DNA from: Odiellus spinosus
Taxonomy: Eukaryota > Arthropoda > Arachnida > Opiliones > Phalangiidae
Direction: 5' to 3'
Assembly (NCBI GenBank): GCA_963920705.1
Contig: OY987226.1
Coordinates: 808,501-872,500 of the forward strand
Length of the DNA: 64,000 bases
Part shown: piece after piece, positions 32,141 through 64,000 of the stretch
How positions within the stretch are numbered: the first letter of the stretch is position 1
Layout of the letters: each line of letters begins with the position of its first letter
Translations under genes and position numbers: made by a program
The notes under the pieces: model-generated
What the model was told of the DNA's origin: nothing
The model's input: only the letters and a program-made list of their open reading frames with translations
The model's database searches: none

Positions 32141-35100
32141 ATGATGGGGGAGATTTTGCACCCTGAGCTCGATCGGCCAGCCTCTCCCGCTCGCCTAGAG
32201 TACACGTCCGAAAAACATCCGAGGCACACTCTAGAAGCTATTAATTTGCTTCGGAAGCATAGAGAGTTATGCGATGTGGTTCTCTTGGTGGGAGCTAGGA
32301 AGATTTTTGCTCACAGAGTGATCCTCTCCGCCTGCTCGCCATACTTCCAAGCCATGTTTACTGGGGAACTTGTTGAAAGCAGACAGACTGAGGTAAAATT
32401 AATTTTTGACTTTACTCTTTCAGGACCTTTTAAAATGTCCCCAAACTAGCTTTGGTTATTGCAAAATAAGTTGCGCAATGTTGAATGAGTATTTATTTGC
32501 TTTTCTGATAAATAAAACATTCTGGGCAGTAGACGGATCGCACTTTATCTAACTACAATGCGCCTTTTTCAAAATATTAGGCTAGGCTTTAGACAGAAGA
32601 AATTAAGAATACTTTCACTCATTCATCAAAATGGATCCAAAACTCCTATATAAACGTACCATGACGCATCTTTTTTTAATTGGCTACATATATTATACAT
32701 GCATTCCCTCTGATGGAATAAAGCGTAATAAAGTCAGACCCTAGTAGTTGGTCCTTAACAAGGCATGGGTTACGATAGTACAAGTCTCCTTAGAACCACT
32801 AGTGGTTTGATGACAAATGATATAGGTTCAAGAAGCAAATGGATACCTGCGTGGCTATTACAAATTCATCGCTCTTACGCCCATTAGAGCAGTTTATCAG
32901 TCATCTAGTACCACACATCCCAGGGTGGCAATGACTAATAAATTTTGGACAACATAGTTCAGTAGTTAAACTGTTTTTAGGGTAGCGTAAAAGATGGATC
33001 TACTTTCAGGCAACCACAAAGAATAGGCTACACCTCTGGGGTTGCCTAAAACTTTGGTTGTAAAATAACTATTATTATTCCTTGAGGTTCTGCCTAGGGT
33101 TAAAGTCATTTTCGCTATTTCATATTCGTGAAAGGAAGTTTTACATTATCAGAATTAAAATTGTTTGTGGCATAAAAACATCCGCGTCATTTCCCTTACC
33201 TAAAAAAGTTAGTCTGATCCAAAGAGGTCCTCAAGAATATTACAAAGGTGCTCAAGACATCTTAAAGACTTCCCCAAGACTTCTTGACATAGTGAAAAAC
33301 TTCCCCAAGACCTCTTAAGACTACATAAGACACTTAAAAGACTTCCCCAAGACTTCATGACATAGTGAAAGACTTCCCCAAGACCGAAAAAAGTTAGTTG
33401 TATCCAAAGAGGTCCTCAAGAACACTACAAAGGTGCTAAAGACTTCCCCAAGAGTTCTTCACATAATGAAATACTTCCCTAAGAGTTCTTCATGTAATGA
33501 AAGACTTCCCCAAGACCCCTTAAGGCTACATAAGAGACCTGAAAGACATCCCCATGACCTCTTATGACTAACTTTTTTCGGTAAGGGTTATCAGAACCAC
33601 AATTACCGATATCTTATGCCATTTTGATTTTGAGATTTCTTTATTTACGGATCATCCCAGAAGAGTTTTTTGATCTGAAGCTACCTGAATTTTTTTTTTT
33701 TTTGTTAGTAGGAAATACCTAATAACATAATACAAAAGCCCATTGCTTTAATATTTTCTTGACCCCTTTTTTTCTCCTGGTTATTGACGAGCTAGAGCAT
33801 GTAACCATTCAGCTCCAAAAAATTTGACAAAATTCTTAAACAATTGACAAATAAAAAAAGTATACAATTGAAGAGCTGGACCACCACAATTAAATTAAAT
33901 TAAATATTAGACAAGTTGATTCATTTTAGATTATTAGAGTTAAGTTATATTTAAGGTTAGATTGCTAAAATTGAAGGTTAATTTAGTTAAACTTGTGGGG
34001 TCAGCAGAATCTATAGCTTGAAATGTTTTTAAATTGTGACACGCTAGAGGCCGAAGTGATCGGGTTAGGAAGGCTATTCCAAGAAACCACAGTAAGGGTA
34101 AAAAAGGAGTCCTTCTTCTCATCCGTACGACAGCTAGGGGGCGTCACTAGGCCTTTTTTTGGGGGCTATAGAATAATCAAAAATCTTAGTTATACATTAT
34201 AAACGTTTGTATTTCTCAGGTTAGGTATAAAATATGTACTATTTTCCATTGACTTCTCAAGTTATCCATTTGAATTGGAAAAGCTATAATGATTTTACGT
34301 AAGCTCTTAATGATTTGAAACTTCTTTTTCTAGGTGACGATCCGTGATATCGACGAACACGCCATGGATATGTTGATAGAGTTTGCGTACACGTCGCATA
34401 TTGTTGTGGAAGAGTCAAACGTCCAAGTTCTTCTACCCGCCGCGTGTCTCCTTCAGATGACTGAAATTCAAGAAGTTTGTTGCGATTTCTTGAAACGGCA
34501 ACTGGATCCGACTAATTGTTTAGGCATCAGAGCCTTTGCTGACACCCATTCGTGTAGAGAGTTACTGAGAATAGCTGACAAATTTACGCAGCATAATTTT
34601 CAAGAGGTGAGAATCGCTAATTTTAATAAATTAGTATCTTGAAAGTCTTCAAAATTTTATTTGTTCTTCTGAATTGGATTTAATTCGGAGGCTCTCAAAC
34701 CTTTTTGGGTCTATTGCTTAGGAAGATTTTAAATTTTTAACGTCCCCAACATTTTTATCTTTTGATTTTCAATTCTTGCCCCAAAAACTTGGCAACCTTT
34801 TTTTAATATTCCTTGATTTTGAGCGTGGGTTAGGATGACCCGAAACAGTTGTTAAGTAATTTTTTCCACATCTCCTACAAACTCTTTCATAAATTTTTGA
34901 ACAGGTGATGGAAAGTGAAGAATTTTTGCTACTGCCTGTAAATCAACTAATAGACATAATTTCGAGTGACGAACTAAACGTTAGAAGTGAGGAGCAAGTT
35001 TTCAATGCTGTGATGGCTTGGGTTAAATACAACGTGTCTGAAAGGAGACAACATTTAGCGCAGGTTCTGCAGCACGTGAGACTTCCTCTACTATCGCCAA

Positions 35101-44966: not shown

Positions 44967-46098
44967 ATTACTAGAGTAGAAATTTTATAGTATTCTAGAA
45001 GCTGTAAAACTGCAAAAATGGGGGGAATTTCAAATTAAAAATGAAATTTTATGTTTGGTTTAGCAGAGTCTTTCACAGACGACAGTTCTACGTTTCAGAA
45101 AGGAGAGGCTGAAATAATCAAAAACGGTGTAAACGAGGACGGAAATAAGTCGGACATGTCCAGTCAATTTTGTTAAATGTCGATAATTTTTTAGAAAACA
45201 AAAGGGTCATTCTACATTTTGCGCAATAAGATTTTCAATCGGTCGTTTAGCCAGCTCATTGGGTCACTGAGCCAGCTCTACCAAAACTTAAGCTTCTAAC
45301 ATTTAGACATCAGAGGTTTGCCTATTATGGGCTTGAACATCTTGTTAATATAGATATGGATTTTGGCGCCCAAATACTATAAATATGAAAATATGAAAAA
45401 AATCGAAAAAACTTAATTTTTTTCAAGGGGTACCCCTTGTAAAAAAAAAAAAAAGGGAATTTTTTCCCTTGGAAAATTTCCTGTGATTTTTTAGGATTTC
45501 GAATTTCTTTCATATTTCTTTGAGCTGTAATTTAATTTCTGTCCTTTTACGGGTTTGAATTTTTGAAGTGCGAAGCGAAATATGTTTTTGTATAATTAAT
45601 TTGCAATAAAAATATCCTCCAGTGCACTGAACTAGACATTTAAGATTCATTTCAAACAAAGAAAACTCTACATTTTTTTTTTGGAAATTTTACTAATCAC
45701 CTTGTTTATTTGTCCATGAAATATTTAATTACAGTGCTTACATATTTGCCATCCAGCTTTAAACATAGAAAACGTATAATTAAGCTGATATTTTAAATGG
45801 GTAATAAGGCGGACATTTTAATATTCGAATTATTTTATTTAAAGGATAAATCCGTGTGTTTTAAAGTGTTATTGAAGCGTATCCGCGATTTTCAAAGGGA
45901 TAAGCTATGGATATATTTGATTTGGGTGCGCGTATAAACCCCGTTTAATATTTTTTCTTGATTTTTTAACACACGATTCCAATAAAAGAGAAGCCTATTT
46001 GTGACAGATATTGGGGATATACAAAAAATTATGTTACAATAGCCTACCCTTCTAGTTGGGCAGCTTAAATGTTTTTTTATTAATTTTTTAGTGTTCTG
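44967..46098. other. Interval between CEP41 and the lectin-like receptor gene
   Basis: This 1.1 kb should hold the CEP41 promoter and the 3' untranslated region of the upstream lectin-like gene; both genes are on the minus strand. TTTATT at 46076-46081 and near 45833 are candidate minus-strand poly(A) signals. No further gene or repeat is recognised. The open frames here are short and AT-rich. Confidence 0.5.
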
Positions 46099-49000
46099 TT
46101 AAGTTTCGCACATTCTATTAGTAAAACTTAAAACCGTTGTATCTGACGTTTCGAATAAATTATTACTAAAACTGCGGTCTCGCTCAGTAAGTCGGCTTCT
46201 TCGTTTACGATAGAACCAAACTGAAACGCCAACCGTGATACAAACCAGCGACAATACCGTAAGTACCACAATCGTAACGTTAGAACTTGAGTGATCTGAA
46301 TCAAAAAAAGGTGTTATTTGTCTACCGTCTTATTTTAATTTAAAATATTTTACGCTTACGCTTGTTCGTGGTTTTCTTATCAGTAACCAGTTTTTCTTTC
46401 CTACCTGAAAATAAACGTTTAAATGTGTATAAGTTCATAAATAGAAATATTTCCTTTCGATCAAAATCAATTCTCAGTTTTGAAAGTTCCTACGAATGAA
46501 CGAATGGTGTCGGATTCGAATTTAGCGGAAGATTATTTGTTTTTTAGCTAGGGTGAGTTAGAGGCTTCGCGGTAGAGTGGTGAGTGGGGAGATCGAGTCC
46601 CGCGGGTAACGTTGGTTTATTATTAATTGTGAAATTCAAGTTTTGTTAAATTTTAAATAGAAACTTTGTTATGAATGCCGTAGCTAGAATACTGGGTCGA
46701 AGAGAGTAGGATGTTTCAATGTCTGTTTTATTTTCAAAGCGTGTTTTATTTTCAAAGCGTGTTTTATTTTCAAAGAGTGTTTTATTTTCAAAGCGTGTTT
46801 TATTTTCAAAGCGTGTTTTATTTTCAAAAAAGGGGAGTTTTATTTTCAAAAAAGGGGAGTTTTATTTTCAGAAAAGGGGAGTTTTATTTTCGAAAAAGGG
46901 GAGTTTTATTTTCGAAAAAGGGGAGTTTTATTTTCGAAAAAGGGGAGTTTTATTTTCAAAAAAGGGGAGTTTTATTTTCAAAAAAGGGGAGTTTTATTTT
47001 CAAAAAAGGGGAGTTTTTTACAGGGGGTGTATTTATTATTCTTATTTTTTACAGGGGGTGTATTTATTATTCTTATTTTTTACAGGGGGTGTATTTATTA
47101 TTTATTTTTTTTACAGGGGGTGTATTTATTATTTATTTTTTTACAGGGGGTGTATTTATTATTTATTTTTTTACAGGGGGTGTATTTATTATTTATTTTT
47201 TTTACAGGGGGTGTATTAATCATTTATTTTTTTTACAGGGGGTGTATTTATTATTTTTTTTACAGGGGGTGTATTTATTATTTTTTTTACAGGGGGTGTA
47301 TTTATTATTTTTTTTTTTACAGGGCGTGTATTTATTATTTATTTTTTTTACAGGGGGTGTATTTATTATTAATTTTTTTACAGGGGGTGTATTTATTATG
47401 TAAAAAAAATTGAACGATAAATACACCCCCTGTAAAAAAAATTGAACGATAAATACACCCCCTGTAAAAATAATTAATAATAAATACACCCCCTGTGAAA
47501 AAAATAAATAATAAATACACCCCTTCAAAAAAGGAGAGTTTTTTATTTTCAAAAAAGGGGAGTTTTATTTTCAAAAAAGGGGAGTTTTATTTTCAAAAAA
47601 GGGGAGTTTTATTTTCAAAAAAGGGGAGTTTTATTTTCAAAAAAGGGGAGTTTTATTTTCAAAAAAGGGGAGTTTTATTTTCAAAAAAGGGGAGTTTTAT
47701 TTTCAAAAAAGGGGAGTTTTATTTTCAAAAAAGGGGAGTTTTATTTTCAAAAAAGGGGAGTTTTATTTTCAAAAAAGGGGAGTTTTATTTTCAAAAAAGG
47801 GGAGTTTTATTTTCAAAAAAGGGGAGTTTTATTTTCAAAAAAGGGGAGTTTTTTACAGGGGGTGTATTTATTATTCTTATTTTTTACAGGGGGTGTATTT
47901 ATTATTTTTTTTTACAGGGGGTGTATTTATTATTTATTTTTTTACAGGGGGTGTATTTATTATTTATTTTTTTACAGGGGGTGTATTTATTATTTATTTT
48001 TTTTACAGGGGGTGTATTTATCATTTATTTTTTTTTACAGGGGGTGTATTTATTATTTATTTTTTTACAGGGGGTGTATTTATTATTTTTTTTACAGGGG
48101 GTGTATTTATTATTATTTTTTTTACAGGGGGTGTATTTATTATTTATTTTTTTTACAGGGGGTGTATTTATTATTAATTTTTTTACAGGGGGTGTATTTA
48201 TTATGTAAAAAAAATTGAACGATAAATACACCCCCTGTAAAAAAAATTGAACGATAAATACACCCCCTGTAAAAATAATTAATAATAAATACACCCCCTG
48301 TGAAAAAAATAAATAATAAATACACCCCTTCAAAAAAGGAGAGTTTTTTATTTTCAAAAAAGGGGAGTTTTATTTTCAAAAAAGGGGAGTTTTATTTTCA
48401 AAAAAGGGGAGTTTTATTTTCAAAAAAGGGGAGTTTTATTTTCAAAAAAGGGGAGTTTTATTTTCAAAAAAGGGGAGTTTTATTTTCAAAAAAGGGGAGT
48501 TTTATTTTCAAAAAAGGGGAGTTTTATTTTCAAAAAAGGGGAGTTTTATTTTCAAAAAAGGGGAGTTTTATTTTCAAAAAAGGGGAGTTTTATTTTCAAA
48601 AAAGGGGAGTTTTATTTTCAAAAAAGGGGAGTTTTATTTTCAAAAAAGGGGAGTTTTATTTTCAAAAAAGGGGAGTTTTATTTTCAAAAAAGGGGAGTTT
48701 TATTTTCAAAAAAGGGGAGTTTTATTTTCAAAAAAGGGGAGTTTTATTTTCAAAAAAGGGGAGTTTTATTTTCAAAAAAGGGGAGTTTTATTTTCAAAAA
48801 AGGGGAGTTTTATTTTCAAAAAAGGGGAGTTTTATTTTCAAAAAAGGGGAGTTTTATTTTCAAAAAAGGGGAGTTTTATTTTCAAAAAAGGGGAGTTTTA
48901 TTTTCAAAAAAGGGGAGTTTTATTTTCAAAAAAGGGGAGTTTTATTTTCAAAAAAGGGGAGTTTTATTTTCAAAAAAGGGGAGTTTTATTTTCAAAAAAG

Positions 49001-52000
49001 GGGAGTTTTATTTTCGAAAAAGGTGAGTTTTATTTTCGAAAAAGGGGAGTTTTATTTTCGAAAAAGGGGAGTTTTATTTTCGAAAAAGGGGAGTTTTATT
49101 TTCGAAAAAGGGGAGTTTTATTTTCGAAAAAGGGGAGTTTTATTTTCGAAAAAGGGGAGTTTTATTTTCGAAAAAGGGGAGTTTCATTTTCGAAAAAGGG
49201 GAGTTTTATTTTCGAAAAAGGGGAGTTTTATTTTCGAAAAAGGGGAGTTTTATTTTCAAAAAAGGGGAGTTTTATTTTCAAAAATGGGGAGTTTCATTTT
49301 CAAAAAAGGGGAGTTTTATTTTCAAAAAAAGGGGAGTTTTATTTTCAAAAAAAGGGGAGTTTTATTTTCAAAAAAAGGGGAGTTTTATTTTCAAAAAAGG
49401 GGAGTTTTATTTTCAAAAAAGGGGAGTTTTATTTTCAAAAAAGGGGAGTTTTATTTTCAAAAAAGGGGAGTTTTATTTTCAAAAAAAGGGGAGTTTTATT
49501 TTCAAAAAAGGGGAGTTTTATTTTCAAAAAAAGAAGAGTTTTATTTTCAAAAAAGGGGAGTTTTATTTTCAAAAAAGGGGAGTTTTATTTTCAAAAAAAG
49601 GGGAGTTTTATTTTCAAAAAAGGGGAGTTTTATTTTCAAAAAAGGGGAGTTTTATTTTCAAAAAAGGGGAGTTTTATTTTCAAAAAAGGGGAGTTTTATT
49701 TTCAAAAAAGGGGAGTTTTATTTTCAAAAAAGGGGAGTTTTATTTTCAAAAAAGGGGAGTTTTATTTTCAAAAAAGGGGAGTTTCATTTTCAAAAAAGGG
49801 GAGTTTTATTTTCAAAAAAAGGGGAGTTTTATTTTCAAAAAAAAAGGGAGTTTTATTTTCAAAAAAGGGGAGTTTTATTTTCAAAAAAGGGGAGTTTTAT
49901 TTTCAAAAAAGGGGAGTTTTATTTTCAAAAAAGGGGAGTTTTATTTTCAAAAAATTGGAGTTTTATTTTCAAAAAAGGGACGTTTTATTTTCAAAAAAGG
50001 GGAGTTTTATTTTCAAAAAAGGGGAGTTTTATTTTCAAAAAAAGAAGAGTTTTATTTTCAAAAAAGGGGAGTTTTATTTTCAAAAAAGGGGAGTTTTATT
50101 TTCAAAAAAAGGGGAGTTTTATTTTCAAAAAAAGGGGAGTTTTATTTTCAAAAAAGGGGAGTTTTATTTTCAAAAAAGGGGAGTTTTATTTTCAAAAAAG
50201 GGGAGTTTTATTTTCAAAAAAGGGGAGTTTTATTTTCAAAAAAGGGGAGTTTTATTTTCAAAAAAGGGGAGTTTTATTTTCAAAAAAGGGGAGTTTTATT
50301 TTCAAAAAAAGAAGAGTTTTATTTTCAAAAAAGGGGAGTTTTATTTTCAAAAAAGGGGAGTTTTATTTTCAAAAAAGGGGAGTTTTATTTTCAAAAAAGG
50401 GGAGTTTTATTTTCAAAAAAAGGGAGTTTTATTTTCAAAAAAGGGGAGTTTTATTTTCAAAAAAGGGGAGTTTTATTTTCAAAAAAGGGGAGTTTTATTT
50501 TCAAAAAAGGGGATTTTTATTTTCAAAAAAAGGGGAGTTTTATTTTCAAAAAAAGGGGAGTTTTATTTTCAAAAAAGGGGAGTTTTATTTTCAAAAAAGG
50601 GGATTTTTATTTTCAAAAAAGGGAGTTTTATTTTCAAAAATGGGGAGTTTTATTTTCAAAAAAGGGGAGTTTTATTTTAATTTTTTTTACAGGGGGTGTA
50701 TTTATTATTTTTTTTTTACAGGGGGTGTATTTATTATTTTTATTTTTTTACAGGGGGTGTATTTATTATTTATTTTTTTACAGGGGGTGTATTTATTATT
50801 TATTTTTTTACAGGGGGTGTATTTATTATTATTTTTTTTTACAGGTGGTGTATTTATTATTTATTTTTTTACAGGGGGTGTACACCCCCGTAAAAAAATA
50901 ATTAATACACCCCTTGTAAAAAAAATAAATAATAAATACACCCCCTGCAAAAAATAAAAATAATAAATACACCCCCTGTAAAAAATAAAAATAATAAATA
51001 CACCCCCTGTAAAAAATAAAAATAATAAATACACCCCCTGTAAAAAAACTCCCCTTTTTTGAAAATAAAACTCCCCTTTTTTGAAAATAAAACTCCCCTT
51101 TTTTGAAAATAAAACTCCCCTTTTTTGAAAATAAAACTCTCCTTTTTTGAAAATAAAAAACCCCTTTTTTGAAAATAAAACTCCCCTTTTTTGAAAATAA
51201 AACTCCCCTTTTTTGAAAATAAAACTCCCCTTTTTTGAAAATAAAACTCCCCTTTTTTGAAAATAAAACTCCCCTTTCTTGAAAATAAAACTCCCCTTTT
51301 TTGAAAATAAAACTCCCCTTTTTCGAAAATAAAACTCCCCTTTTTTGAAAATAAATCTCCCCTTTTTTTGAAAATAAAACTCCCTTTTTTGAAAATAAAA
51401 CTCCCCTTTTCTGAAAATAAAACTCCCCTTTTTTGAAAATAAAGCTCCCCTTTTTTGAAAATAAAACTCCCCTTTTTTGAAAATAAAACTCCCCTTTTTT
51501 GAAATTAAAACTCCCCTTTTTTGAAAATAAAACTCCCCTTTTTTGAAAATAAAACTCCCCTTTTTTGAATTAAAACTCCCCTTTTTTGGAAATAAAACTC
51601 CCCTTTTTTGAAAATAAAACTCCCTTTTTTGAAAATAAAACTCCCCTTTTTTGGAAATAAAACTCCCCTTTTTTGAAAATAAAACTCCCCTTTTTTGAAA
51701 ATAAAACTCCCCTTTTTTGAAAATAAAACTCCCCTTTTTTGAAAATAAAACTCCCCTTTTTTGAAAATAAAACTCCCCTTTTTTGAAAATAAAACTCCCC
51801 TTTTTTGAAAATAAAACTCCCCTTTTTTGAAAATAAAACTCCCCTTTTTTGAAAATAAAACTCCCCTTTTTTGAAAATAAAACTCCCCTTTTTTGAAAAT
51901 AAAACTCCCCTTTGTTGAAAATAAAACTCCCCTTTTTTGAAAATAAAACTCCCCTTTTTTGAAAATAAAACTCCCCTTTTTTGAAAATAAAACTCCCTTT

Positions 52001-55000
52001 TTTGAAAATAAAACTCCCTTTTTTGAAAATAAAACTCCCTTTTTTGAAAATAAAATTCCCTTTTTTGAAAATAAAACTCCCTTTTTTGAAAATAAAACTC
52101 CCTTTTTTGAAAATAAAACTCCATTTTTTGAAAATAAAACTCCCCTTTTTTGAAAATAAAACTCTACTTTTTTGAAAATAAAACTCCCCTTTTTTGATAA
52201 TAAAACTCCCCTTTTTTGATAATAAAACTCCCCTTTTTTGAAAATAAAACTCCCCTTTTTTGAAAATAAAACTCCCCTTTTTTGAAAATAAAACTCCCTT
52301 TTTTTGAAAATAAAACTCCCTTTTTTGAAAATAAAACTCCCTTTTTTGAAAATAAAACTCCCTTTTTTGAAAATAAAACTCCCCTTTTTTGAAAATAAAA
52401 CTCCCCTTTTTTGAAAATAAAACTCCCCTTTTTTGAAAATAAAACTCCCCTTTTTTGAAAATAAAACTCCCCTTTTTTGAAAATAAAACTCCCCTTTTTT
52501 GAAAATAAAACTCCCCTTTTTTGAAAATAAAACTCCCCTTTTTTGAAAATAAAACTCCCCTTTTTTGAAAATAAAACTCCCCTTTTTTGAAAATAAAACT
52601 CCCCTTTTTTGAAAATAAAACTCCCCTTTTTTGAAAATAAAACTCCCCTTTTTTGAAAATAAAACTCCCCTTTTTTGAAAATAAAACTCCCCTTTTTTGA
52701 AAATAAAACTCCCCTTTTTTGAAAATAAAACTCCCCTTTTTTGAAAATAAAACTCCCCTTTTTTGAAAATAAAACTCCCCTTTTTTGAAAATAAAACTCC
52801 CCTTTTTTGAAAATAAAACTCCCCTTTTTTGAAGGGGTGTATTTATTATTTTTTTACAGGGGATGTATTTATTATTAATTATTTTACAGGGGGTGTATTT
52901 ATCGTTCAATTTTTTTTACAGGGGGTGTATTTACCGTTAATTTTTTTTTTACATAATAAATACACCCCTGTAAAAAATATAAATAATAAATACACCCCCT
53001 GTAAAAAAAATAAATAATAAATACCCCCCTGTAAAAAAATAAATAATAAATACTTCCCCTGTAAAAAATAAATACACCCCCTGTAAAAAATGAGAATAAA
53101 AAATACACCCCCTGTAAAAAATAAGAATAATAAATACACCCCTGTAAAAAAAAATAATAAATACACCCCCTGTAAAAAATAAAAATAATAAATACACCCC
53201 CTGTAAAAAATAAATATAATAAATACACCCCCTGTAAAAAAACTCCCCTTTTTCGAAAATAAAACTCCCCTTTTTCGAAAATAAAACTCCCCTTTTTTGA
53301 AAATAAAACTCCCCTTTTTTGAAAATAAAACTCCCCTTTTTTGAAAATAAAACTCCCCTTTTTTGAAAATAAAACTCCCCTTTTTTGAAGGGGTGTATTT
53401 ATTATTTTTTTACAGGGGATGTATTTATTATTAATTATTTTACAGGGGGTGTATTTATCGTTCAATTTTTTTTACAGGGGGTGTATTTATCGTTAATTTT
53501 TTTTTTCATAATAAATACACCCCCTGTAAAAAATATAAATAATAAATACACCCCCTGCAAAAAAAATAAATATTAAATACACCCTCTGTAAAAAAATAAA
53601 TAATAAATACACCCCTTGTAAAAAATAAATACACCCCCTGTAAAAAATAAGAATAATAAATACACCCCCTGTAAAAAATAAAAATAATAAATACACCCCC
53701 TGTAAAAAATAAAAATAATAAATACACCCCCTGTAAAAAATAAAAATAATAAATACACCCCCTGTAAAAAATAAAAATAATAAATACACCCCCTGTAAAA
53801 AATAAAAATAATAAATACACCAACTGTAAAAAATAAAAATAATAAATACACCCCCTGTAAAAAACTCCCCTTTTTTGAAAATTAAACTCCCCTTTTTCGA
53901 AAACTCCCCTTTTTCGAAAATAAAACTCCCCTTTTTCGAAAATAAAACTCCCCTTTTTTGAAAATAAAACTCCCATTTTTTGAAAATAAAACTCCCCTTT
54001 TTTGAAAATAAAACTCCCCTTTTTTGAAAATAAAACTCCCCTTTTTTGAAAATAAAACTCCCCTTTTTTGAAAATAAAACTCCCCTTTTTTGAAAATAAA
54101 ACTCCCCTTTTTCGAAAATAAAACTCCCCTTTTTTCGAAAATAAAACTCCCCTTTTTCGAAAATAAAACTCCCCTTTTTCGGAAATAAAACTCCCCTTTT
54201 TCGAAAATAAAACTCCCCTTTTTCGAAAATAAAACTCCCCTTTTTTGAAAATAAAACTCCCCTTTTTTGAAAATAAAACTCCCCTTTTTTGAAAATAAAA
54301 CTCCCCTTTTTTGAAAATAAAACTCCCCTTTTTTGAAAATAAAACTCCCCTTTTTTGAAAATAAAACTCCCCTTTTTTGAAAATAAAACTCCCCTTTTTT
54401 GAAAATAAAACTCCCCTTTTTTGAAAATAAAACTCCCCTTTTTTGAAAATAAAACTCCCCTTTTTTGAAAATAAAACTCCCCTTTTTTGAAAATAAAACT
54501 CCCCTTTTTTGAAAATAAAACTCCCCTTTTTTGAAAATAAAACTCCCCTTTATTGAATATAAAACTCCCCTTTATTGAAAATAAAACTCCCCTTTTTTGA
54601 AAATAAAACTCCCCTTTTTTGAAAAAAAAACTCCCCTTTTTTGAAAAAAAAACTCCCCTTTTTTGAAAATAAAACTCCCATTTTTTGAAAATAAAACTCC
54701 CCTTTTTTGAAGGGGTGTATTTATTATTTTTTTACAGGGGATGTATTTATTATTAATTATTTTACAGGGGGTGTATTTATCGTTCAATTTTTTTTACAGG
54801 GGGTGTATTTACCGTTAATTTTTTTTTTTACATAATAAATACACCCCTGTAAAAAATATAAATAATAAATACACCCCCTGTAAAAAAAATAAATAATAAA
54901 TACCCCCCTGTAAAAAATAAATAATAAATACTTCCCCTGTAAAAAATAAATACACCCCCTGTAAAAAATGAGAATAAAAAATACACCCCCTGTAAAAAAT

Positions 55001-58000
55001 AAGAATAATAAATACACCCCTGTAAAAAAAAATAATAAATACACCCCCTGTAAAAAATAAAAATAATAAATACACCTCCTGTAAAAAATAAATATAATAA
55101 ATACACCCCCTGTAAAAAAACTCCCCTTTTTCGAAAATAAAACTCCCCTTTTTCGAAAATAAAACTCCCCTTTTTCGAAAATAAAACTCCCCTTTTTTGA
55201 AAATAAAACTCCCCTTTTTTGAAAATAAAACTCCCCTTTTTTGAAAATAAAACTCCCCTTTTTTGAAAATAAAACTCCCCTTTTTTGAAAATAAAACTCC
55301 CCTTTTTTGAAAATAAAACTCCCCTTTTTTGAAAATAAAACTCCCCTTTTTTGAAAATAAAACTCCCCTTTTTTGAAAATAAAACTCCCCTTTTTTGAAA
55401 ATAAAACTCCCCTTTTTCGAAAATAAAACTCCCCTTTTTCGAAAATAAAACTCCCCTTTTTCGAAAATAAAACTCCCCTTTTTCGAAGATAAAACTCCCC
55501 TTTTTCGAAGATAAAACTCCCCTTTTTCGAAGATAAAACTCCCCTTTTTCGAAAATAAAACTCCCCTTTTTCGAAGATAAAACTCCCCTTTTTCGAAGAT
55601 AAAACTCCCCTTTTTCGAAAATAAAACTCCCCTTTTTCGAAAATAAAACTCCCCTTTTTTGAAAATAAAACTCCCCTTTTTCGAAAATAAAACTCCCCTT
55701 TCGATTATCACAAATTCCATTAAAAGGGAACGTGCAATTGGATAATTTAAACTTGGTTCACCACTCTACCGCCAAGACTCTAACTCACCTGGGATAGTTA
55801 ACAATTAAACTTGAATATAATTTACACATTCTATTACGATAAAACTTGGCAAATTATACTTTGCTTTTAAGGGGTCATCCGTAAATAAATTATTTCGTAA
55901 CTTTTAAACGTCGCCCCATACGACAAAATGTCGTAAAACACTTTCGACTCAAAAGGACCCAAAGAAACCGTTGAACGTCGATTCTACCCCATTTTTGGGA
56001 CATCCTGTATATTAAACTTGTTTATATGACACGGGCGTCAAAATAAATTTCGTCACTCCAAAGCCATTGAAATACGCGTGTAGTATGGTTTAGAAAATTT
56101 GATTCGTAAAATTCCAACCGTTTTCTAGGAAATAGGATTTAAACTCCACTTTTTTTACCCTAGCCTTATAATGCGCTTGATATTTAAAAAAGAGTTAATG
56201 CCAACTCTTTAAATAGCCCACGCAACGCCTCATATAATCTATCAAAGCTAGCGCACATGGCAAACAAAAATAACAAAGGGGAAAATTTAGTTTGCCAATT
56301 TTCCACTATAGAGAGCGCGATTAAGCGAAGATTTTGCAGCCGCGTCTCTCCCGTTACCGTGCCAACCCGACGTAGTAACGTCTCCTAATCCGGGTTGCCA
56401 CGGTAACGGGAGAGACGGGTCCGAAAAATCGCTGAATGATCCCGCCACCTATCGAGAAAAAAAGTCCCATCTAGCTTCATTGGTTTTGATAAAAATAGCA
56501 GGCGTTGCCCCAAAGAATAGCTTTTTTTTTAAACAAAATAAAGTTTTTACCTGTAATGTTGTATCTATACACCAATGTGGTCGTTGGTATTTGAATTCCA
56601 TTGGAAGGTGTTGTTTGATAAGACGTAGGTGTTTCTCTGTATCTAGAAGTAGACGTCCTTGAAGTAAGAGCGGCAGTTGTGACAAACACACGTGTCACAG
56701 ACGCTGTGGAATTTGGCTCGCTCATTACTCGAGTACTTTCATTACTAGATGGAACTGCGAAAGGAAATAACACAGGGTAATTCTTTTTAGTTCTTCATTT
56801 TTCCTATATTTTCAACGTGTTCAGGAAGTTCATATAATTTCGACCATTTTCCTATACTTTTCAAGATTTCATTCGTATTTGCTGGTTTTCAGAGCGTGTT
56901 GAACCAGCTCGACGAACCGTTGAACCAATCAGTTCTACGGATCTTTGAGCCAACCCAATCTAATCTAAAGCGTCTAACATTTAGCTTGTTAGGTTAAACT
57001 TTAACACGAGAGGTGTGGCTATAATATGGGTTTACCCATCTTGTTAATATGTATGTCGCGCTTAAAAATTACAACGTATATAAAATTAATATTTTTAATA
57101 GAGAAGTGTTCTTTCTCGTTTCTTTGACAGTACTCACTATTCGTCCAAACATTTAATACCCGATTGGTACCCGTCAACTATTTTTGGGAGAGACTAATTA
57201 CCCGCTCTGTAATACCCGAAAGAAATCGTGTACCCGCCTCGATACCCGATAAGAAAATCTTTAATTATCCTAGACTATATTGATAGAGATAAGAAATAAA
57301 GATTTAACAAGATTGAAAATTTCATATACGTACTTTTTGGTATTTGACATAAAAATGGCTTAGGATACGCGCAAGTGACAAACAAATCGAATGATTTTTT
57401 CAAAATACTCCATGATCCACATCGTAGCTTTGAACGTTGTCGTTCACCTATTTGCGAGAAAAGAACATTTTATAATATTAGAAATAAACTACTTTGACGG
57501 ATCGGGAGGAAATCAGACAAAAACTATTTCATTAAAATATCCCAGATCAGAAATGTCTACCGCGCATAGAGAGCCTCAAAGGAAAATGTATTTAATATAT
57601 TCAATAAGATTGATAGCTTACGAATCCTGGTTAGGATACAGTTATCGAATTCTTCGGGGTCTCGCTTTTCAAAGCACATGTCCAGATGGCCTGGGTTATT
57701 TATTACACCATTAAATGGAACTCGATCCGTCCAATGAAAGCTTTCTAAATGGAAATATTAGTATCTTAATACTTTAATACTTAAAAATAATAATCAAAGC
57801 TAACACGAAACTAATAAAGATACAATTACAATAGGACCATTTTATAAACCTAAAAAACCCGCGGTTTTTGGTTTCGAATAAGATTTAACATCTATCAATG
57901 TCTGGAAACCACTTTTTTGGTGTACCAATTAACTCGTGGACAATTAAGTTTAAATTAAGATTCAAAATGTGTAACCTATCTCATCTTCGTACAATCCTAT

Positions 58001-61000
58001 CCAAAAGGAATTTCGAATTCCCTTCGAAGACAATGTACCGCGTAATTTTTCTAGTTCTTCGACGTTATGAAGATTGGCCAAGGTTCCGCCTATGAAATAT
58101 ACAAAAAACACAAATTTTTTATTTAACAGAAGAAGAGAAAAAAATACCTCGAGCATAAAAATAAAAACATTTTATAATTTTAAAACGACGACTATTTTTG
58201 CAAACTATATTCGGGTGCTTTTTCAGATCTGTTTTTTTTACAAAATGGCGTGATTCATATTTTAAAATCCATCCATCAACTTACCATTAGTTGCGCATTC
58301 AAGTTTAGCTTGTTGCCACGTGTTTGGTCTTTTATCTTCCAAATAAAAACAGCTTCGGGTACCAACGTCGATCCACGGAACAGTTTCCGAATTAGGACAT
58401 TCCAAGTTAGTTCGATTACTTAAAGAGGATTCTTCTTCCGAACCTACCCCAATAATAAAGCGTTTAATAAATTAAAAGCTGGTACTAGAGAATAAAGTGT
58501 TTAAAATTTTAAACCTGTAATGTTTTTTATTTGGCAAATGAATTCGATGGAAAGGCTGCAATTGGAGGTGACCCATTTTCCATTATTTCGTTCCAAAGAT
58601 ACGCATCGTGTCGAGTTACTCAAACCTGGTTCTAAGTTATTCCAGTTGTCGAAAGTGAGATTATCACCGTTGCTCCATCCAAACAACGGATTTCTCTGTT
58701 GAAACAATTGATTTCCATCCATTAGATCAAATTATCATAATTTTTAACGAAGATATCACTTACCTCGTTATCGGATAACCCAGTCCAAAAAAAAAGGCCT
58801 TTGGACTTCCAAGTTAGGGTTTGAACAAAAGCCTGCTCAAAACCGTCGACGATTGAAACCAAATGTCCACCATCCACCACGCAACGATCTTCCGCGTTTT
58901 TCCAGCTCAGCGATTCATTTTGAAACATTTTGTAACACGAAGTTCCGTAGTGCTGGTAACCTTCCAACTTGCACTTGGAATCCGGTTTTACCGCTACTTT
59001 TGGCAAGTTTTTGTCTGGAAATGATTTTTCGGATTCAATTTTATGATACAATTACGCTAGTTTTTTTACGCCACCTTCCCTGAAAACAATTTCTATTGGC
59101 TCTCATATGCTCATCAATAGCTACACCCCTACTTCATTGTCTACGCTACAATTGTAAAAATACAAAGCTAAATTTCCAGCTTAAATATTTTCTAATAACA
59201 CATACATATATATACTATAATCAGATATTTGCTTTCATAAATTATTTCCTCACAAAAAAATTATATATTTACCTGGTAATATTTGACATACAAATGGTCT
59301 AACTTCGCTGCAATTCGAAGCTGTTTTCCATTTTCCGGGCCTTAGTTTGTTTATGACTGCCGACACGCAGACTTTAAAGGTAGGGCTTTCCAGACCCTAT
59401 GTCGTATGAAAAAAAAAAACAGTATGGGTAAATATTATTAAAGCTAAAAAATAATTCCATTTATTTTACCGGGTGTGGAACCGCATTTAGTGGCTCTCCA
59501 TCATCCCAATTGTCGAATCCTCTTAAAGCGGTAACATCAGCCCAGCGATATTCGCCAAGTACCCTTTTTAAACCAATCCAAGGGTCGGTTTTGAGGCCTC
59601 GAAGAAGGGAAGTAATTTCCACTATAATTAAAACGTTGTAATTTAATGTAAATTAATTTCAGTTTTTGGTTAGTGAGGAACACGTATCTAAATAACGATA
59701 AACGAGACAATCAGTTCGTAACAGTAGACTTAGTTACTACTTTTGTGCGCGCTGTTTGCCATTTTATAAACGTCAAGTTTCGTTATTCGTCAATTAAGAT
59801 AGGTGTCCACCGTGTCCTTTGTTAATAGTCCTTGCTACCATGGACATAATTGTCTCTAGCGCTGTTAAATAAATACCTTGTTCCGTCTTTGAATGAGCGG
59901 TGACTAGACTGCCTTCTGGATGATATAATTTGCAGTGTTTCAGAGCCGAAGACCAGTTCATCCATTCCGTTTCATTAAATCCGAAAGTTTTCCTGCACCA
60001 GTTTTCTTTAAAAGACAAAACCTTTTTTTCTAATTCCTTAGATTTTTAAAACTCAGGTCAATTTGCCCCCCAAGACGTCATAGCTTTGTCTCTACAAAAT
60101 TGACCCCAAAAAACGCGTCATCTCGGCACAGTGATGACGTATTTGTTTCCTTTAGTAAACTCTAAAGTCACGCCACCTATCTTAATAGATATAAGGATAA
60201 ATACCCAAATCTGGTGTCTATTAAGATAGGTGGTGTCCATTTTTAATATAGTGCTTTGATATAAAAAGGTATTAATAAATGAATATTTCTTTACGGTGTT
60301 TAGTCCATCCGTCCAAACATTCTCCCTCAAATTTCAAAACTCGCGTCTGATTATCTGTTCCGTCGCTATCGGGAGGTGTAAATTTGCAAATGTAGGAATA
60401 GTCCAGGAAATTTCCTGAATGGCAGTCGGCCTCTTTCCATACGCCTGGATCAAGGGATAAAAATGTAGCGTCATATACTTATAATAAAAAAAAAATTGAT
60501 AAATCGACCTAGAAATGATGGGCCCTATCTGCTCTGAAATTTGGCCCTTTAAAAATTATCTTCCCTAGCTAATAAACCCGTAATTTGTTTAGTAATTATA
60601 ATTTTATCTCCGGGTATAATTCGTATCTAGCATTTGATACGCGTCTGTTTATATAATTTGAGGTTTTAATTAACACACAATTTATCCGAGATTAAAATAT
60701 CCGAAAAAGACCCCCTCCCTTTTCCAAATGGGGTAGGCAACCACGGAATCAGACAGAGAAATGGGGATGCCCATGATCTCATCATCCACCTTTTCCAGTC
60801 TGATTGCCTACGCCTTTGGAGGGGGTCAAAATAAATGAAAGAGGTCTTACGAAGTAGCCCTTACCTCTTGCCACGTAAAGGCATTTTTCCCAGGCGTTAA
60901 TAACCAATGGATAATCAAGAAATGTTTCTTCTGTGAAATCTACAACGGTTTGATCGGACCATCTAAACCCAGAATTTCCCGTAGATTTCATTCCGATCCA

Positions 61001-62373
61001 GTAACTATCTTTAAACCATAGTTCTTGCTTAGCAATCTAATACAAAAAAATATATATATTTTATTGTAATATGACCTAACTAAAAATTAATTTAACATAA
61101 TAACATAATTTAATATTAATTTAATTTTAATATCCACTAACTTTTGTCATTTAACAAAACTTTGTTGAAGTGGTCTAGTAAATTATACTAAATGAACTTT
61201 TATGATTTGGAACTTTATTTGTATTTTACTGGTTTACGAATCTGTCATTACAAAAACTATTCCGCTCAACGACCCATTGAGCTGGCTCAAAAACGAAGAG
61301 TTCAAAAATGAAGTCATTGGTGTAACTATTACTATGGGTTTGCTCATCTTGTTACACCCTATCTTTGACTTTCTGTTTGTTCAGCGATTAAAAATGGAAC
61401 TAAAACGTACGAATTTAAACGGCATCCAATATTTATTTCACAAAACCTTTTACTAATTCCCTTAAAGGGAGAATGCAACCTAATTACAAGTGATGTTTTA
61501 TAGATTCCTTATCGTTTAAATAGGCCTAATCTATCGATAAAAAGTTTACAATACAAATATTAAACTAGAAATAAATTTAAAACTTACCCTGAAAATAGGC
61601 TTAGCGGGATTCACGGAGATCCTGAATCGCGTCCGTGTAAGGTCTAGCGACCAATGAGCAAAGGCCCGTCGTTCGCGCGAAATCTCCACGAGACTTACGT
61701 CGCGCGCGATTGGTCGCTAGACCTTACACGCGAGGAAAACAGGACCTCCATGAATCCCACTAAGCCTATTTTCAGGGAAAGTTTTAAATTTATTTCTAGT
61801 TTAATATTTGTATTGTAAACTTTTTATCGATGGATTAGGCCTATTTAAACGATAAGGAATCGATAAAAAAATCACTTGTTGCATTCTCCCTTTAAGTTTG
61901 TATCAATTACTCACACTTTCTTTGATAAAATCCCATTCGGCTTTGGAATGAAACGAGGCTAGATGACCACCGTATTTAACGCAAGTGGACTCTGCCTTTT
62001 GCCAGTCAATCGTATCGAACATGCTCTTGTAAGTAAAGTAGCAGTTCCCGTTGAAGTGGTACCTGTGGTAATTCACGGAATGTGGGCCGCATGGAAGATT
62101 GTCCGAAAGACCTGCAATTAAAAGTTTTCTCCGAATCCTTAGTTTTACAAAAGCGCGTCCCAGACATACCCGTAATCATTACGTTAATACCAATAAATTA
62201 CCGTAAGACAGTAAATTACGCGCTAATTACCGCGTAATTTACCAATTTTTAAATTACTAATTTTAGAACGTACATTGATTTAGTAAAACTAAAAGGGAGT
62301 GGGTTTTATACAACTCACCGCATTTTATTGATGTAAAAAGTATAATTACGATTTGAACAATATGGAAATTCAT
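46099..62373 (-). CDS. Type I membrane receptor with four C-type lectin-like domains (spliced, 16 exons, about 770 aa)
   Basis: Exons (minus strand): 62319-62373, 61915-62111, 60865-61036, 60295-60444, 59877-60005, 59470-59621, 59273-59396, 58764-59014, 58515-58695, 58285-58443, 57976-58089, 57622-57690, 57334-57447, 56551-56754, 46360-46404 and 46099-46295 (TAA). Phases agree throughout. Exon 1 is a signal peptide (MNFHIVQIVIILFTSIKC). Four CTLDs follow (about residues 27-175, 190-326, 340-470 and 480-621), each with WIGM/WIGL/WTGL-type cores and paired cysteines ending in CKF or CQI. Next come a Ser/Thr-rich stalk (about 625-705), a transmembrane helix (about 711-733, TIVVLTVLSLVCITVGVSVW) and a basic-start cytoplasmic tail of about 37 residues. 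The layout resembles a short macrophage mannose receptor-like protein. None of the CTLDs shows intact EPN/QPD plus WND calcium-sugar motifs, so the ligand may not be a carbohydrate. Domain 4 is short and the most diverged. Intron 14 holds the 9 kb foldback array. Confidence 0.9.
46552..46583 (+). repeat. Left outer inverted repeat of the foldback array
   Basis: A 32-bp block (starting GGTGAGTTAGAG, ending GCGGTAGAGTGGTGA) lies about 130 bp outside the tandem array. It recurs in inverted orientation with two mismatches at 55758-55789, just outside the other end. On this side it is followed by GATCGAGTCCCGCG, which resembles a tRNA B box, so it may be a tRNA-derived SINE fragment. Confidence 0.6.
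47523..48357 (+). repeat. Higher-order duplication inside the left arm
   Basis: The composite 46830-47552 (A block, B block, inverted B block and the AAAAAGGAGAGTTTTTTATT junction) is repeated about 805 bp further on, ending at 48357. The two copies share the same small variants, such as TTGAACGATAAATACACC in the inverted B units, so the duplication is recent relative to the individual units. Confidence 0.75.
50874..50889. repeat. Perfect palindromic centre of the foldback array
   Basis: GGGGGTGTACACCCCC is a 16-bp perfect palindrome, flanked by a T-run plus ACA on the left and G plus TAAAAAAATA on the right, so complementarity continues outward into the tandem units. This is the point at which the orientation of the whole array flips. 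Confidence 0.85.
52833..55115. repeat. Higher-order repeats inside the right arm
   Basis: The composite GAAGGGGTGTATTTATTATT, a short B block, an inverted B block and an A block recurs at 52833, 53389 and 54711. The first and third copies share private variants (CCGTTAATTTT, TACCCCCCTGT, TACTTCCCCTGT), so they are closer to each other than to the middle one. This fits block-wise duplication or gene conversion. Confidence 0.75.
55758..55789 (-). repeat. Right outer inverted repeat of the foldback array
   Basis: This is the inverted partner of 46552-46583, with 30 of 32 bases matching, about 60 bp beyond the last tandem unit. The tRNA-like continuation seen on the left is missing here. Confidence 0.6.
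56293..56504 (+). mobile_element. GCCAATTTTCCACTATAG-family repeat, copy 2
   Basis: This is the second copy of the element at 38758-38992, in intron 14 of the lectin-like gene and close to exon 14. Its centre is a hairpin: GTCTCTCCCGTTACCGTG on the left pairs with CACGGTAACGGGAGAGAC on the right. The right arm contains a perfect RFX X-box-like site at 56394-56407. Confidence 0.7.
60173..60233. repeat. 17-bp perfect inverted repeat in intron 4 of the lectin-like gene
   Basis: CCACCTATCTTAATAGA at 60173-60189 is exactly complementary to TCTATTAAGATAGGTGG at 60217-60233, with a 27-bp loop. A related TTAAGATAGGTGTCCACC occurs at about 59796-59813. It could be the remains of a small DNA element. 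Confidence 0.7.
60520..60567 (+). repeat. Dispersed repeat, copy 3 (partial)
   Basis: GGGCCCTATCTGCTCTGAAA and the following CCCTTTAAAAATTATCTTCC match the start of the repeat at 3978-4102. The rest of that repeat is absent. It lies in intron 3 of the lectin-like gene. Confidence 0.55.
61461..61896. mobile_element. Long palindromic element in intron 2 of the lectin-like gene
   Basis: The ends are CTTAAAGGGAGAATGCAACC and TTGCATTCTCCCTTTAAG. Complementarity continues through ATTCCTTATCGTTTAAATAG, AAACTAGAAATAAATTTAAA and AGGCTTAGCGGGATTC almost to the centre, giving arms of about 200 bp. Partial sequence of the same family lies at about 62624-62720. It is a nonautonomous foldback/MITE element. 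Confidence 0.8.
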
Positions 62374-64000
62374 TTTTAAATGAATTTCAAACGTCTTTAA
62401 GCGCGCGAAGCTAACTGATTCACGCGAATTGGTTCTCCAAACAAATTAAAGAAACCAGAAAATCTTTCGTACAATGTCTTATCGACCGGATATCCGTCAT
62501 CTCGTGACTGTTTTTGCGGTTATTTAGTCGGAAACTGAGTGTTTTCCAGTTCTTCCTGATCAACGCCTGTGTACATCGATATAATTGCCAAAGGGATGTA
62601 AATTAGTTTAATCTTATATAGTCTTAAAGGGCGAATGACACCTAAAAACGTGTGATTTTTTTATAGAACAGTAAACAAATTTAAAAACAAATATTAAACT
62701 AGAAATAAATTTAAAACTTAACATCAAAATTGGAGAACACCCGAACTCCCCGTATATATTGGATATAAATGCCCAAATGGGGAGATTTTCGTTAACCGAC
62801 CCCCCGCCACTAATTAACGATGGTTGTAGACTATTTAGGACCAACTGGGGAGTTCAGAAAAAATTAAAATGTTTCCGACCAGCGGAAGTTTGAGAAAAAC
62901 ATATTTGAAAATTTGATTTTAAAATAGAGTGCGAAATATGTTGGGTTAGGTTAGGTTGGAATCTATGGGATTTAACATACAAACTTTCGATGGTTGAAGA
63001 TTTGTTTAGTTATTTTTTCTGAACTCCAAATGGTCCTAATTAGTTCAAAAGCATCCTTATTTGGTGGGGTCGGGTCACTTATCGGAAAGCTTGCCAATCT
63101 AATTTCCATTTGATCAAACTAACGCGCAAATAAATCAAATTTTCATTTGATCAAATCACCCAGGCGCAAACGATCGAATTCCATTTCTAGATTACTTATT
63201 TTAGTCTTCTTTCTCTTGTTAATAATTCATTTTGCGCGGGTAAATTAGCGGGTAGCTGTTGGTCTATGATATGTTGTAAATATTGCAGTGATTGTTTATC
63301 AAAATATTCAGTTCCGACTCTCAAACTGAGTCAAAACTTTCCCCATTAGCCATCACGCGTATAGCACAATTTTCTGATCATTAGCATCCTCTGTCCGGAA
63401 ATAACGCATATTTCCAGTTAAATTTAATACGGAGAATTAACTCTAATAGAGTAGCGGCGTTTACCATATCGGAAACCTTATTTTTGCCATTGAATTAAAA
63501 TTGGAGCCTCTGGCTAATCAAAATCCGAAGTCTTTCAGGTTTTTGCACCAATTAAAAATTACTTTATTTTCCCCTTTACCCTTATTTAATATTGTTATTT
63601 TTAATTATTTTATTGAAGAGAAATTTATATTTAAATATATTAATAGATGTCACTTAAAATCCTTCCCGCCAAACCGTATTTAAATGAATATATAGATTAC
63701 CCCTTTTAATTGCGTTAGCTGATAGCGCCATCTGACGATAAAAAATAGAAATATTTGACGTCATGATTCTTTAAAATCTCCCACCCTCAAATAATTTTAT
63801 TACATAAGAAAACTGGCTTTAAAAACCGCTCAAATTGTTTCAATTATTAAAAGATTTGCTAGAATTGATTAGATATGTATATGAAGAATAGGTTCCAATA
63901 TTCAATCATTTTCAAGGTCAATTGTAAATGACTCTTTTACGTGTTTTGTATATTTTGTTCCTCACTGAGAAAGTTGCTTTTTAAAGTAAGAATTATACTT
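62374..64000. other. Upstream region of the lectin-like receptor gene
   Basis: No coding exon is recognised. The first few hundred bases should contain the minus-strand promoter, but no clear TATA box stands out. A partial copy of the 61461 palindromic element lies at about 62624-62720. The rest is AT-rich sequence with no feature I can name. Confidence 0.5.

What the first reader, a model, noticed from the sequence alone, without database searches (positions are those of the whole stretch)
46711..55697. A 9 kb foldback built from two tandem units inside a receptor intron
The array reads in one direction up to 50881 and in the other afterwards, centred on a perfect palindrome, and both arms are almost entirely unit A (22 bp) and unit B (about 30 bp). 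Long inverted repeats that are themselves tandem arrays are the hallmark of foldback elements (FB in Drosophila, TU in sea urchin). Transcribing the lectin-like gene would produce an intron able to form kilobases of double-stranded RNA, a possible substrate for ADAR editing or Dicer. An assembly artefact at the turn point must be excluded.
Basis: partly seen in the sequence, partly recalled or inferred. Interest (0 to 1): 0.85.

Follow-up and report, generated by a model that had tools for sequence, protein, structure and literature searches.

The report
Mirror-image satellite array in an intron
An intron of an animal lectin-receptor gene is almost filled by a 9-kilobase array of short repeats that runs forward for half its length and backward for the rest; it belongs to a satellite family that has formed such mirror images at many places in this genome, and it is probably not a jumping gene.

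Summary
The array (46720-55698) fills 88% of the last intron of a minus-strand C-type-lectin receptor gene. Unit A reverses once, at 50881. Unit B makes six B+ to B- turns, because five B blocks are themselves hairpin modules. The perfect palindrome at the turn is only 16 bp.

An assembly artefact is unlikely: the ends already face opposite ways within one splice-compatible intron, and B blocks are 89-92% alike between arms but 95-99% within an arm.

Genome searches change the reading. B is a dispersed satellite (19,375 exact 21-mers) with a palindromic relative (3,753 places); A is rarer (1,749). A strict pattern finds 34 B+ to B- turns (30 distinct spacers, about 24 groups) against 5 of opposite polarity. 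A C3 locus shows the same A-B><B-A mirror.

A 32-bp inverted repeat outside the array occurs nowhere else (up to 3 mismatches), and no target-site duplication was found, so membership in a foldback-transposon family is not supported. It works like a foldback. The closest description is the macro-dyad satellite arrays of Tribolium, here with short units and inside a gene.

Folded as RNA, 89% of bases pair. No reads or expression data were available.

The parts
46711..50881 (+). Left arm: A units in + orientation (14+14+106) with B blocks 47019-47528, 47854-48333 and the left half of the centre (50688-50881)
50882..55697 (-). Right arm: A units in - orientation (81+6+37+26) with the right half of the centre (50882-51042) and B blocks 52829-53236, 53385-53859, 54707-55114
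50874..50889 (.). Turn point: 16-bp perfect palindrome where a truncated B+ meets a truncated B-
   Evidence: one further genomic occurrence
47019..47528 (+). B block L1: 13 B+ then 4 B- (hairpin module). Its turn sequence is exactly repeated in L2 and at C12:21861050
47854..48333 (+). B block L2, 98% identical to L1, 805 bp away
52829..53236 (-). B block R1 (reverse complement of the same module; 99% to R3, 90-91% to L1/L2)
53385..53859 (-). B block R2 (95-96% to R1/R3, 91-92% to L1/L2)
54707..55114 (-). B block R3 (99% to R1, 89-90% to L1/L2)
46529..46583 (+). Left member of a 55-bp inverted repeat outside the array (44/55 identical; inner 32 bp 30/32). The 32-bp core is genome-unique at up to 3 mismatches
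55758..55812 (-). Right member of the same inverted repeat
46296..56550 (-). Host intron (10,255 bp, GT...AG, phase 1); the array is 88% of it
56551..56754 (-). Ser/Thr-rich stalk exon of the lectin-like receptor (3' end supported by the frame join; 5' end inferred by eye from an AG acceptor)
46099..46295 (-). Last exon: transmembrane segment (by eye; no Pfam match), short cytoplasmic tail, stop
45423..45440 (.). Single relic of the palindromic P motif (one mismatch to ACAAGGGGTACCCCTTGT), 1.3 kb outside the array

Best explanation
This is a mirror-image (macro-dyad) composite minisatellite array, not a transposon copy. SHOWN: units A and B belong to a short-unit satellite family dispersed over this genome, together with a 15/16-bp unit C and a palindromic unit P (T7 ACAAGGGGTACCCCTTGT A7). 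B arrays have turned back on themselves many times, with many different junctions and a strong polarity bias (B+ into B-, T/G-rich strand entering the turn). The same A-B><B-A mirror exists at a second locus. INFERRED: the turn arises in place by a strand switch (hairpin or template switch) at a B or P unit. The half-palindromic unit makes this easy, and P shows the switch frozen as a unit. It copies the neighbouring A/B higher-order array in inverted orientation. Each arm then homogenises separately by unequal exchange. EFFECT (calculated, not observed): when the lectin gene is transcribed, the intron can fold into a long imperfect RNA duplex, so it works like a foldback element's inverted repeat at RNA level.
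For: Order and orientation of 370 unit cores. B blocks within left 98%, within right 95-99%, between arms 89-92%. Private unit variants per arm (23-bp AAAAAAAGGGGA unit 9:0; 21-bp AAAAAAGGGA unit 0:9), so the arms have evolved separately. Genome counts: B 21-mer 19,375 exact, A 1,749, P 3,753 places, backwards controls 0. 34 B+>B- turns, 31 outside the window, against 5 B->B+ turns; 30 distinct spacers, about 24 groups once near-variants are put together by eye (34:5 gives binomial P 2e-6, 24:5 gives 5e-4). Second A-B><B-A locus, C3:28.82 Mb: A+144 B+3 >< B-6 A-112, flanked by C+ and B+ on the left and P, C- and B- on the right. P-centred turn at C1:0.19 Mb, and a P-to-B transition unit at that array's edge. 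The window's module turn is found exactly on C12. No TE family found in the flanks and no abutting TSD.
Against: The 32/55-bp inverted repeat outside the array is real (0 of 100 shuffled flank pairs, and 0 of 500, reach its score). It is what one would expect of a terminal repeat, and this model does not predict it. The sequence between it and the array does not align between sides better than shuffles (40 of 500 as good), so it is not simply a co-duplicated flank. Turns of the opposite polarity do occur: 5 by the strict pattern and one in each of four fetched loci at C3:27.05 Mb that the pattern misses. The bias could in part come from P-seeded growth and not from strand switching; P arrays also stand at the left edge of the C1 array, which a simple outward-growth model does not predict. 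The number and position of turns inside the array depend on the assembly.
Confidence: 0.75

Rival explanations
1. A foldback transposon (FB/TU/Galileo/Tetris type): a DNA element with long, internally repetitive inverted arms that inserted into the intron. The 55-bp inverted repeat would be its terminal repeat and A/B its subterminal repeats.
For: Geometry. A significant 55-bp inverted repeat lies 136 and 59 bp outside the two array ends. Arrays with the same units are found elsewhere. The window's B module recurs on C12, so modules do move.
Against: The terminal motif is unique in 443 Mb at up to 3 mismatches in 32, and the left flank finds only itself (a search too insensitive to find the right-hand copy). 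No abutting TSD: the best near the 55-bp ends is a 6-mer that does not abut them, and none of 5 or more at the 32-bp core. The repeat is most alike at its inner, not outer, end. The two edges of other A/B arrays that were fetched (L044, L045) do not match the window's flanks. Of five other A/B regions one shows an A mirror in what was fetched. No transposase search was made: one search scanned 6 stretches of the window and one search's list of 81 ORFs was only read by eye.
Confidence: 0.13
2. Assembly artefact: a fold-back chimeric read or a mis-join of two arrays makes a mirror that is not in the chromosome.
For: Long homogeneous arrays are hard to assemble. 474 bp are identical between arms. 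No reads were available.
Against: A fold-back read gives near-identical arms. Here matching B blocks differ by 8-11%, copy numbers are 134 against 150, and variants are arm-private. Both ends join non-array DNA of one intron with matching splice phase, and they already face opposite ways, so at least one turn is needed whatever the interior. The architecture recurs at C3:28.82 Mb with another junction.
Confidence: 0.05
3. Two separate insertions of satellite pieces (for example circular-DNA or gene-conversion fragments) in opposite orientation, fused by chance, with no inverted duplication in place.
For: The modules spread between chromosomes (C12 copy). The arms have about 8-11% divergence and different block spacing.
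Against: Both arms hold the same A plus B+n/B-4 higher-order module, reverse-complemented. The turn falls inside a B block. Opposite-polarity turns are rare by the strict pattern (34 against 5), whereas random fusion would give equal numbers.
Confidence: 0.07

Closest known systems
Macro-dyad symmetries of Tribolium satellite DNAs (PMC13081366, 2026; passages found by term search read, parts of the abstract among them)
   Same: Satellite arrays change monomer orientation to give palindrome-like arrays of a few to tens of kb, mostly two subarrays; two satellites are intermingled; one monomer contains its own large dyad; a degenerate unit sits at the turn. The paper says such arrays had been documented only in Tribolium.
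   Different: There: an ancestral unit of about 110 bp, putative (peri)centromeric megabase regions, conserved inversion sites. Here: 22/30-bp units, a dispersed genic array inside one intron, many different junctions, a polarity bias and an associated palindromic unit. Whether this genome is a Tribolium is not known (unnamed).
Foldback elements: FB (Drosophila) and TU (sea urchin), recalled; Galileo (PMC3573991) and Tetris (PMC4079207), passages read
   Same: Long inverted terminal repeats that can hold tandem units, variable arm length; Tetris has seeded satellites.
   Different: Those have shared ends and TSDs (Tetris 8-10 bp, Galileo 7 bp). Here no second copy of the ends and no TSD was found.
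TCAST transposon-like elements of Tribolium castaneum (PMC3411249, passages read)
   Same: Satellite sequence placed as an inverted pair near or inside genes, including introns.
   Different: 314-1181 bp elements: a nearly complete monomer and a 121-bp inverted segment within TIRs of about 269 bp around a unique core, with an ACT duplication in some; no tandem arms of this kind.
Satellite-filled introns such as Drosophila kl-3/kl-5 (PMC6508621, search listing and start of abstract only)
   Same: Satellite DNA inside a transcribed intron.
   Different: That abstract concerns megabase introns; a mirror arrangement is not mentioned in what was seen.

Membership tests
Foldback transposon (FB/TU/Galileo/Tetris kind) | Long inverted arms that consist largely of tandem units | tested here: met
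Foldback transposon (FB/TU/Galileo/Tetris kind) | Element ends shared by several genomic copies | tested here: not met
   32-bp flank motif only at this locus at up to 3 mismatches; left flank only itself; the two fetched edges of other A/B arrays do not match the window's flanks. More diverged copies are not excluded; the right-flank search did not complete
Foldback transposon (FB/TU/Galileo/Tetris kind) | Target-site duplication next to the ends | tested here: not met
   none at the array ends; near the 55-bp repeat only a 6-mer (AATTTA) that does not abut it.: at the 32-bp core only a 4-mer that does not abut it
Foldback transposon (FB/TU/Galileo/Tetris kind) | A transposase-bearing relative that mobilises it | not tested
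   No transposase search was made in the genome
Macro-dyad satellite array (Tribolium kind) | Array of a genome-wide satellite split into oppositely oriented subarrays of kb size | tested here: met
Macro-dyad satellite array (Tribolium kind) | Recurs at other loci in the same genome | tested here: met
   C3:28.82 Mb mirror; 34 B turns, 31 outside the window; C1 P-centred turn
Macro-dyad satellite array (Tribolium kind) | Conserved inversion-site sequences | tested here: not met
   30 distinct spacers among 34 turns, about 24 groups by eye; the central 16-mer occurs at 2 places in all. Some turns do recur: the window module on C12, and identical or near-identical turns on C277 and C13
Macro-dyad satellite array (Tribolium kind) | Pericentromeric, megabase-sized setting | tested here: not met
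   The array is 9 kb, in a gene intron about 0.86 Mb from one contig end, among other genes; centromere positions unknown

The most novel reading that the evidence does not exclude
A genome-wide family of short satellites makes mirror images as part of its own growth. A palindromic unit (P) or half-palindromic unit (B) triggers a strand switch of fixed polarity, so arrays repeatedly become foldbacks, in introns too. In this gene the mirror may also mask what the repeats would otherwise do. The lectin-sense strand of the left arm carries 176 AATAAA poly(A) hexamers against 8 in the right arm. In the predicted fold 142 of these 184 are fully paired, 135 of them wholly with the other arm. The foldback could thus hide, or under other conditions expose, a bank of intronic poly(A) signals placed before the transmembrane exon, which would switch the receptor between anchored and soluble forms.
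Probability: 0.2. Interest if true: 0.8.

Novelty: new variant of a known kind. Interest (0 to 1): 0.55.

Why it matters
How satellite arrays come to face both ways is an open question; the macro-dyad paper says they had been documented only in Tribolium, in large putative pericentromeric blocks. Here short units, many different junctions and a 34:5 polarity bias in one genome make the mechanism testable by counting. A 9-kb mirror inside an intron gives a natural single-gene case to ask whether long intronic duplexes are edited, diced, skipped or used to hide poly(A) signals. For genome readers it warns that "foldback" geometry alone does not make a transposon.

Tried and rejected
Rejected: the flank inverted repeat as a tRNA-derived SINE head. 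It resembles an A box and B box (recalled), but its 32-bp core is unique in the genome at up to 3 mismatches, and ARAGORN finds no tRNA in the window. The flank inverted repeat as a co-duplicated flank of the array: the inner sequences do not align better than shuffles (40 of 500 as good). miRNA families: 21 Rfam matches in 45500-56600, all below the families' gathering scores; I take them as chance hits to AT-rich hairpins.

A sample of 22 stretches of 10 kb (20 on C1, 2 beside the window) held no exact A or B core; it mainly showed how satellite-rich C1 is. One search repeated by mistake and cost a search. My first unit count used too strict a matcher; one search replaces it. The count of 30 distinct turn spacers treats near-variants as different; grouped by eye they are about 24.
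Full report
WHAT IS THERE. The window lies at C2:808501-872500 of an unnamed 443-Mb genome. Between 46720 and 55698 I placed 370 unit cores at up to 4 mismatches: 284 A (134+, 150-) and 86 B (43+, 43-). The order is A+14, B+13 B-4, A+14, B+12 B-4, A+106, B+6 >< B-5, A-81, B+4 B-9, A-6, B+4 B-12, A-37, B+4 B-9, A-26. A reverses once. B makes six B+ to B- turns, because the five non-central B blocks are hairpin modules in themselves. The palindrome at the turn is 16 bp.

THE TWO ARMS. Oriented alike, B blocks L1 and L2 are 98% identical, R1 and R3 99%, R2 to R1/R3 95-96%, and left to right 89-92% (best local alignments of 423-501 bp). Unit variants are arm-private: the 23-bp AAAAAAAGGGGA form 9:0 and the 21-bp AAAAAAGGGA form 0:9. 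The commonest A unit is shared (84 and 82 copies), and 474 bp are identical between arms. So the mirror looks older than the last rounds of amplification inside each arm. This also speaks against a fold-back read, which would give near-identical arms. The outer ends face opposite ways and lie in one intron, so at least one turn is needed however the interior was assembled.

THE GENE. On the minus strand, ORFs at 61903-62175 and 58722-59051 match Pfam Lectin_C; the first has LY75 and other mannose-receptor relatives as its best PDB matches. The intron 46296-56550 (10,255 bp, GTAAAAAC...TGATTCAG) joins a Ser/Thr-rich stalk exon to a transmembrane-plus-tail exon in a continuous frame. The array is 88% of that intron. 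No transcript evidence was available.

THE FLANKS. Outside the array, 136 bp away on the left and 59 bp on the right, lies an inverted repeat (46529-46583 and 55758-55812; 44/55 identical, inner 32 bp 30/32). It is not chance: 0 of 100 shuffles and 0 of 500 reach its score. Its 32-bp core with up to 3 mismatches occurs only twice in the genome, at these two places. The left flank finds only itself, although that search is not sensitive enough to find even the right-hand copy. No target-site duplication abuts the array, the 55-bp repeat or its 32-bp core. Neither the sequence inside the repeat nor that outside it aligns between sides better than shuffles (40 and 128 of 500 as good). I cannot say whether the repeat is a relic of a single-copy element or a footprint of the rearrangement.

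THE FAMILY. The B core (21-mer) has 19,375 exact copies, the A core 1,749 and the palindrome TTTACAAGGGGTACCCCTTGTAAA 3,753 places; the same patterns read backwards have none. The window holds 218 of the A and 44 of the B copies. An A-to-B junction occurs at 15 places, 6 of them in the window. The other 9 lie in five regions. C3:28.82 Mb is a mirror of the same kind: B+ C+ A+144 B+3 >< B-6 A-112 P C- B- C- B- C- B-, about 9 kb fetched with neither end reached (7 bases between two fetched pieces were not read). C3:27.05 Mb has B turns in both directions and no A mirror in what was fetched. C4:22.20 Mb, C4:22.92 Mb and C14:4.08 Mb are one-directional in what was fetched. At C1:0.19 Mb a B+ array passes through seven P-like units into a B- array, and an intermediate unit ACAAGGGGTGTTTTT stands between P and B at that array's left edge. 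So B looks like a half of P.

TURNS ACROSS THE GENOME. With a strict pattern (two exact 17-mers at most 30 apart), B+ into B- occurs 34 times on 11 contigs (31 outside the window), and B- into B+ 5 times. The 34 have 30 distinct spacers; putting near-variants together by eye leaves about 24 groups. The binomial P is 2e-6 for 34:5 and 5e-4 for 24:5, if each were independent. The window's module turn is present exactly on C12. An inversion inside an array makes one turn of each polarity, so the excess points to arrays that turn back once. Both counts are lower bounds; the pattern misses the window's centre, the turns of both polarities seen in the fetched C3 loci and the P-centred turn.

HOW IT MOST LIKELY AROSE. 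Shown: dispersal of units and modules, many turns, polarity, separate divergence of the arms. Inferred: a strand switch at a half-palindromic unit during replication or repair, copying the neighbouring A/B higher-order array in reverse; later growth by unequal exchange. Tandem arrays are common here: in 20 stretches of 10 kb from C1, they cover 23% on average and 3 of 20 are more than half array.

WHAT IT COULD DO. The lectin-sense strand folds to -5620 kcal/mol with 89% of bases paired, 3421 of 4018 pairs crossing the turn. With one arm flipped it folds to -1404 kcal/mol and 48%. Allowing interruptions of 1 nt on either side, helices of 100 bp or more hold 2,849 bp, the longest 747 bp. On that strand the left arm has 176 AATAAA hexamers and the right arm 8; in the fold 142 of 184 are wholly paired, 135 of them with the other arm. 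These are calculations on naked RNA; proteins and co-transcriptional folding are ignored.

COMPARISON. It works like a foldback element's arms but fails two tested features of that kind (shared ends, target-site duplication), at the sensitivity of these searches. The nearest description found is the macro-dyad satellite arrays of Tribolium; PMC13081366 states that such arrays had been documented only in that genus (passages read). Literature searches showed, in the titles and abstract starts listed, no report of mirror arrays of 20-30-bp units inside an intron; the library holds only open-licence papers and some listings were cut. The species here is unnamed, so I cannot say how it relates to Tribolium.

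LIMITS. No reads, no expression data, no relatives. I spent much of it on the C1 sample.

On re-reading the calls I changed the flank distances, the wording of B reversals, the independence of the 34 turns, the partner of the poly(A) hexamers, the TCAST description and the transposase statement, and added. The odds did not change.

Noticed in passing
window 61496-61655 / 61709-61868: A compact foldback with 160-nt arms, 92% complementary, 53 nt apart, next to a lectin exon; part of an arm recurs at 62672-62733. Looks like a MITE.
   Followed up: no
window 8064-9221: Nested inverted repeats (arms up to 302 nt, 83%) within 1.2 kb.
   Followed up: no
window 12333-12461 / 16478-16606 and 33317-33515: Inverted copies 4 kb apart (129 nt, 91%), each holding short tandem units of the AAGACTTCCCC kind; similar units also at 33317-33515. 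Possibly ends of an element with internal tandem repeats.
   Followed up: no
window 45423-45468: A P-like palindrome (CAAGGGGTACCCCTTG) and a short hairpin motif (GGGAA TTTT TTCCC) sit together 1.3 kb outside the array.
   Followed up: partly
L017, L018, L019 (C1:11.2, 12.9, 14.6 Mb): Three of 20 sampled 10-kb stretches of C1 are almost wholly satellite: a 14-bp unit, a 149-bp unit and an 18-bp unit (AATTGAAGAGTTATTTTC). The last shares GAGTT..ATTTTCAA with unit A.
   Followed up: no
L025 8525-9345: Six tandem tRNA-Ser genes with three different anticodons (cga, aga, tga) in repeats of about 150 bp.
   Followed up: partly
window 46724-46828 and 55480-55620: The array's edges carry their own unit variants (18-bp units on the left; GATAAAACTCC units on the right), as expected if exchange homogenises the interior more than the edges.
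   Followed up: partly
C277:9339, 16906, 27456: Three near-identical B turns 7.6 and 10.6 kb apart on one contig suggest a higher-order repeat that itself contains a turn.
   Followed up: no
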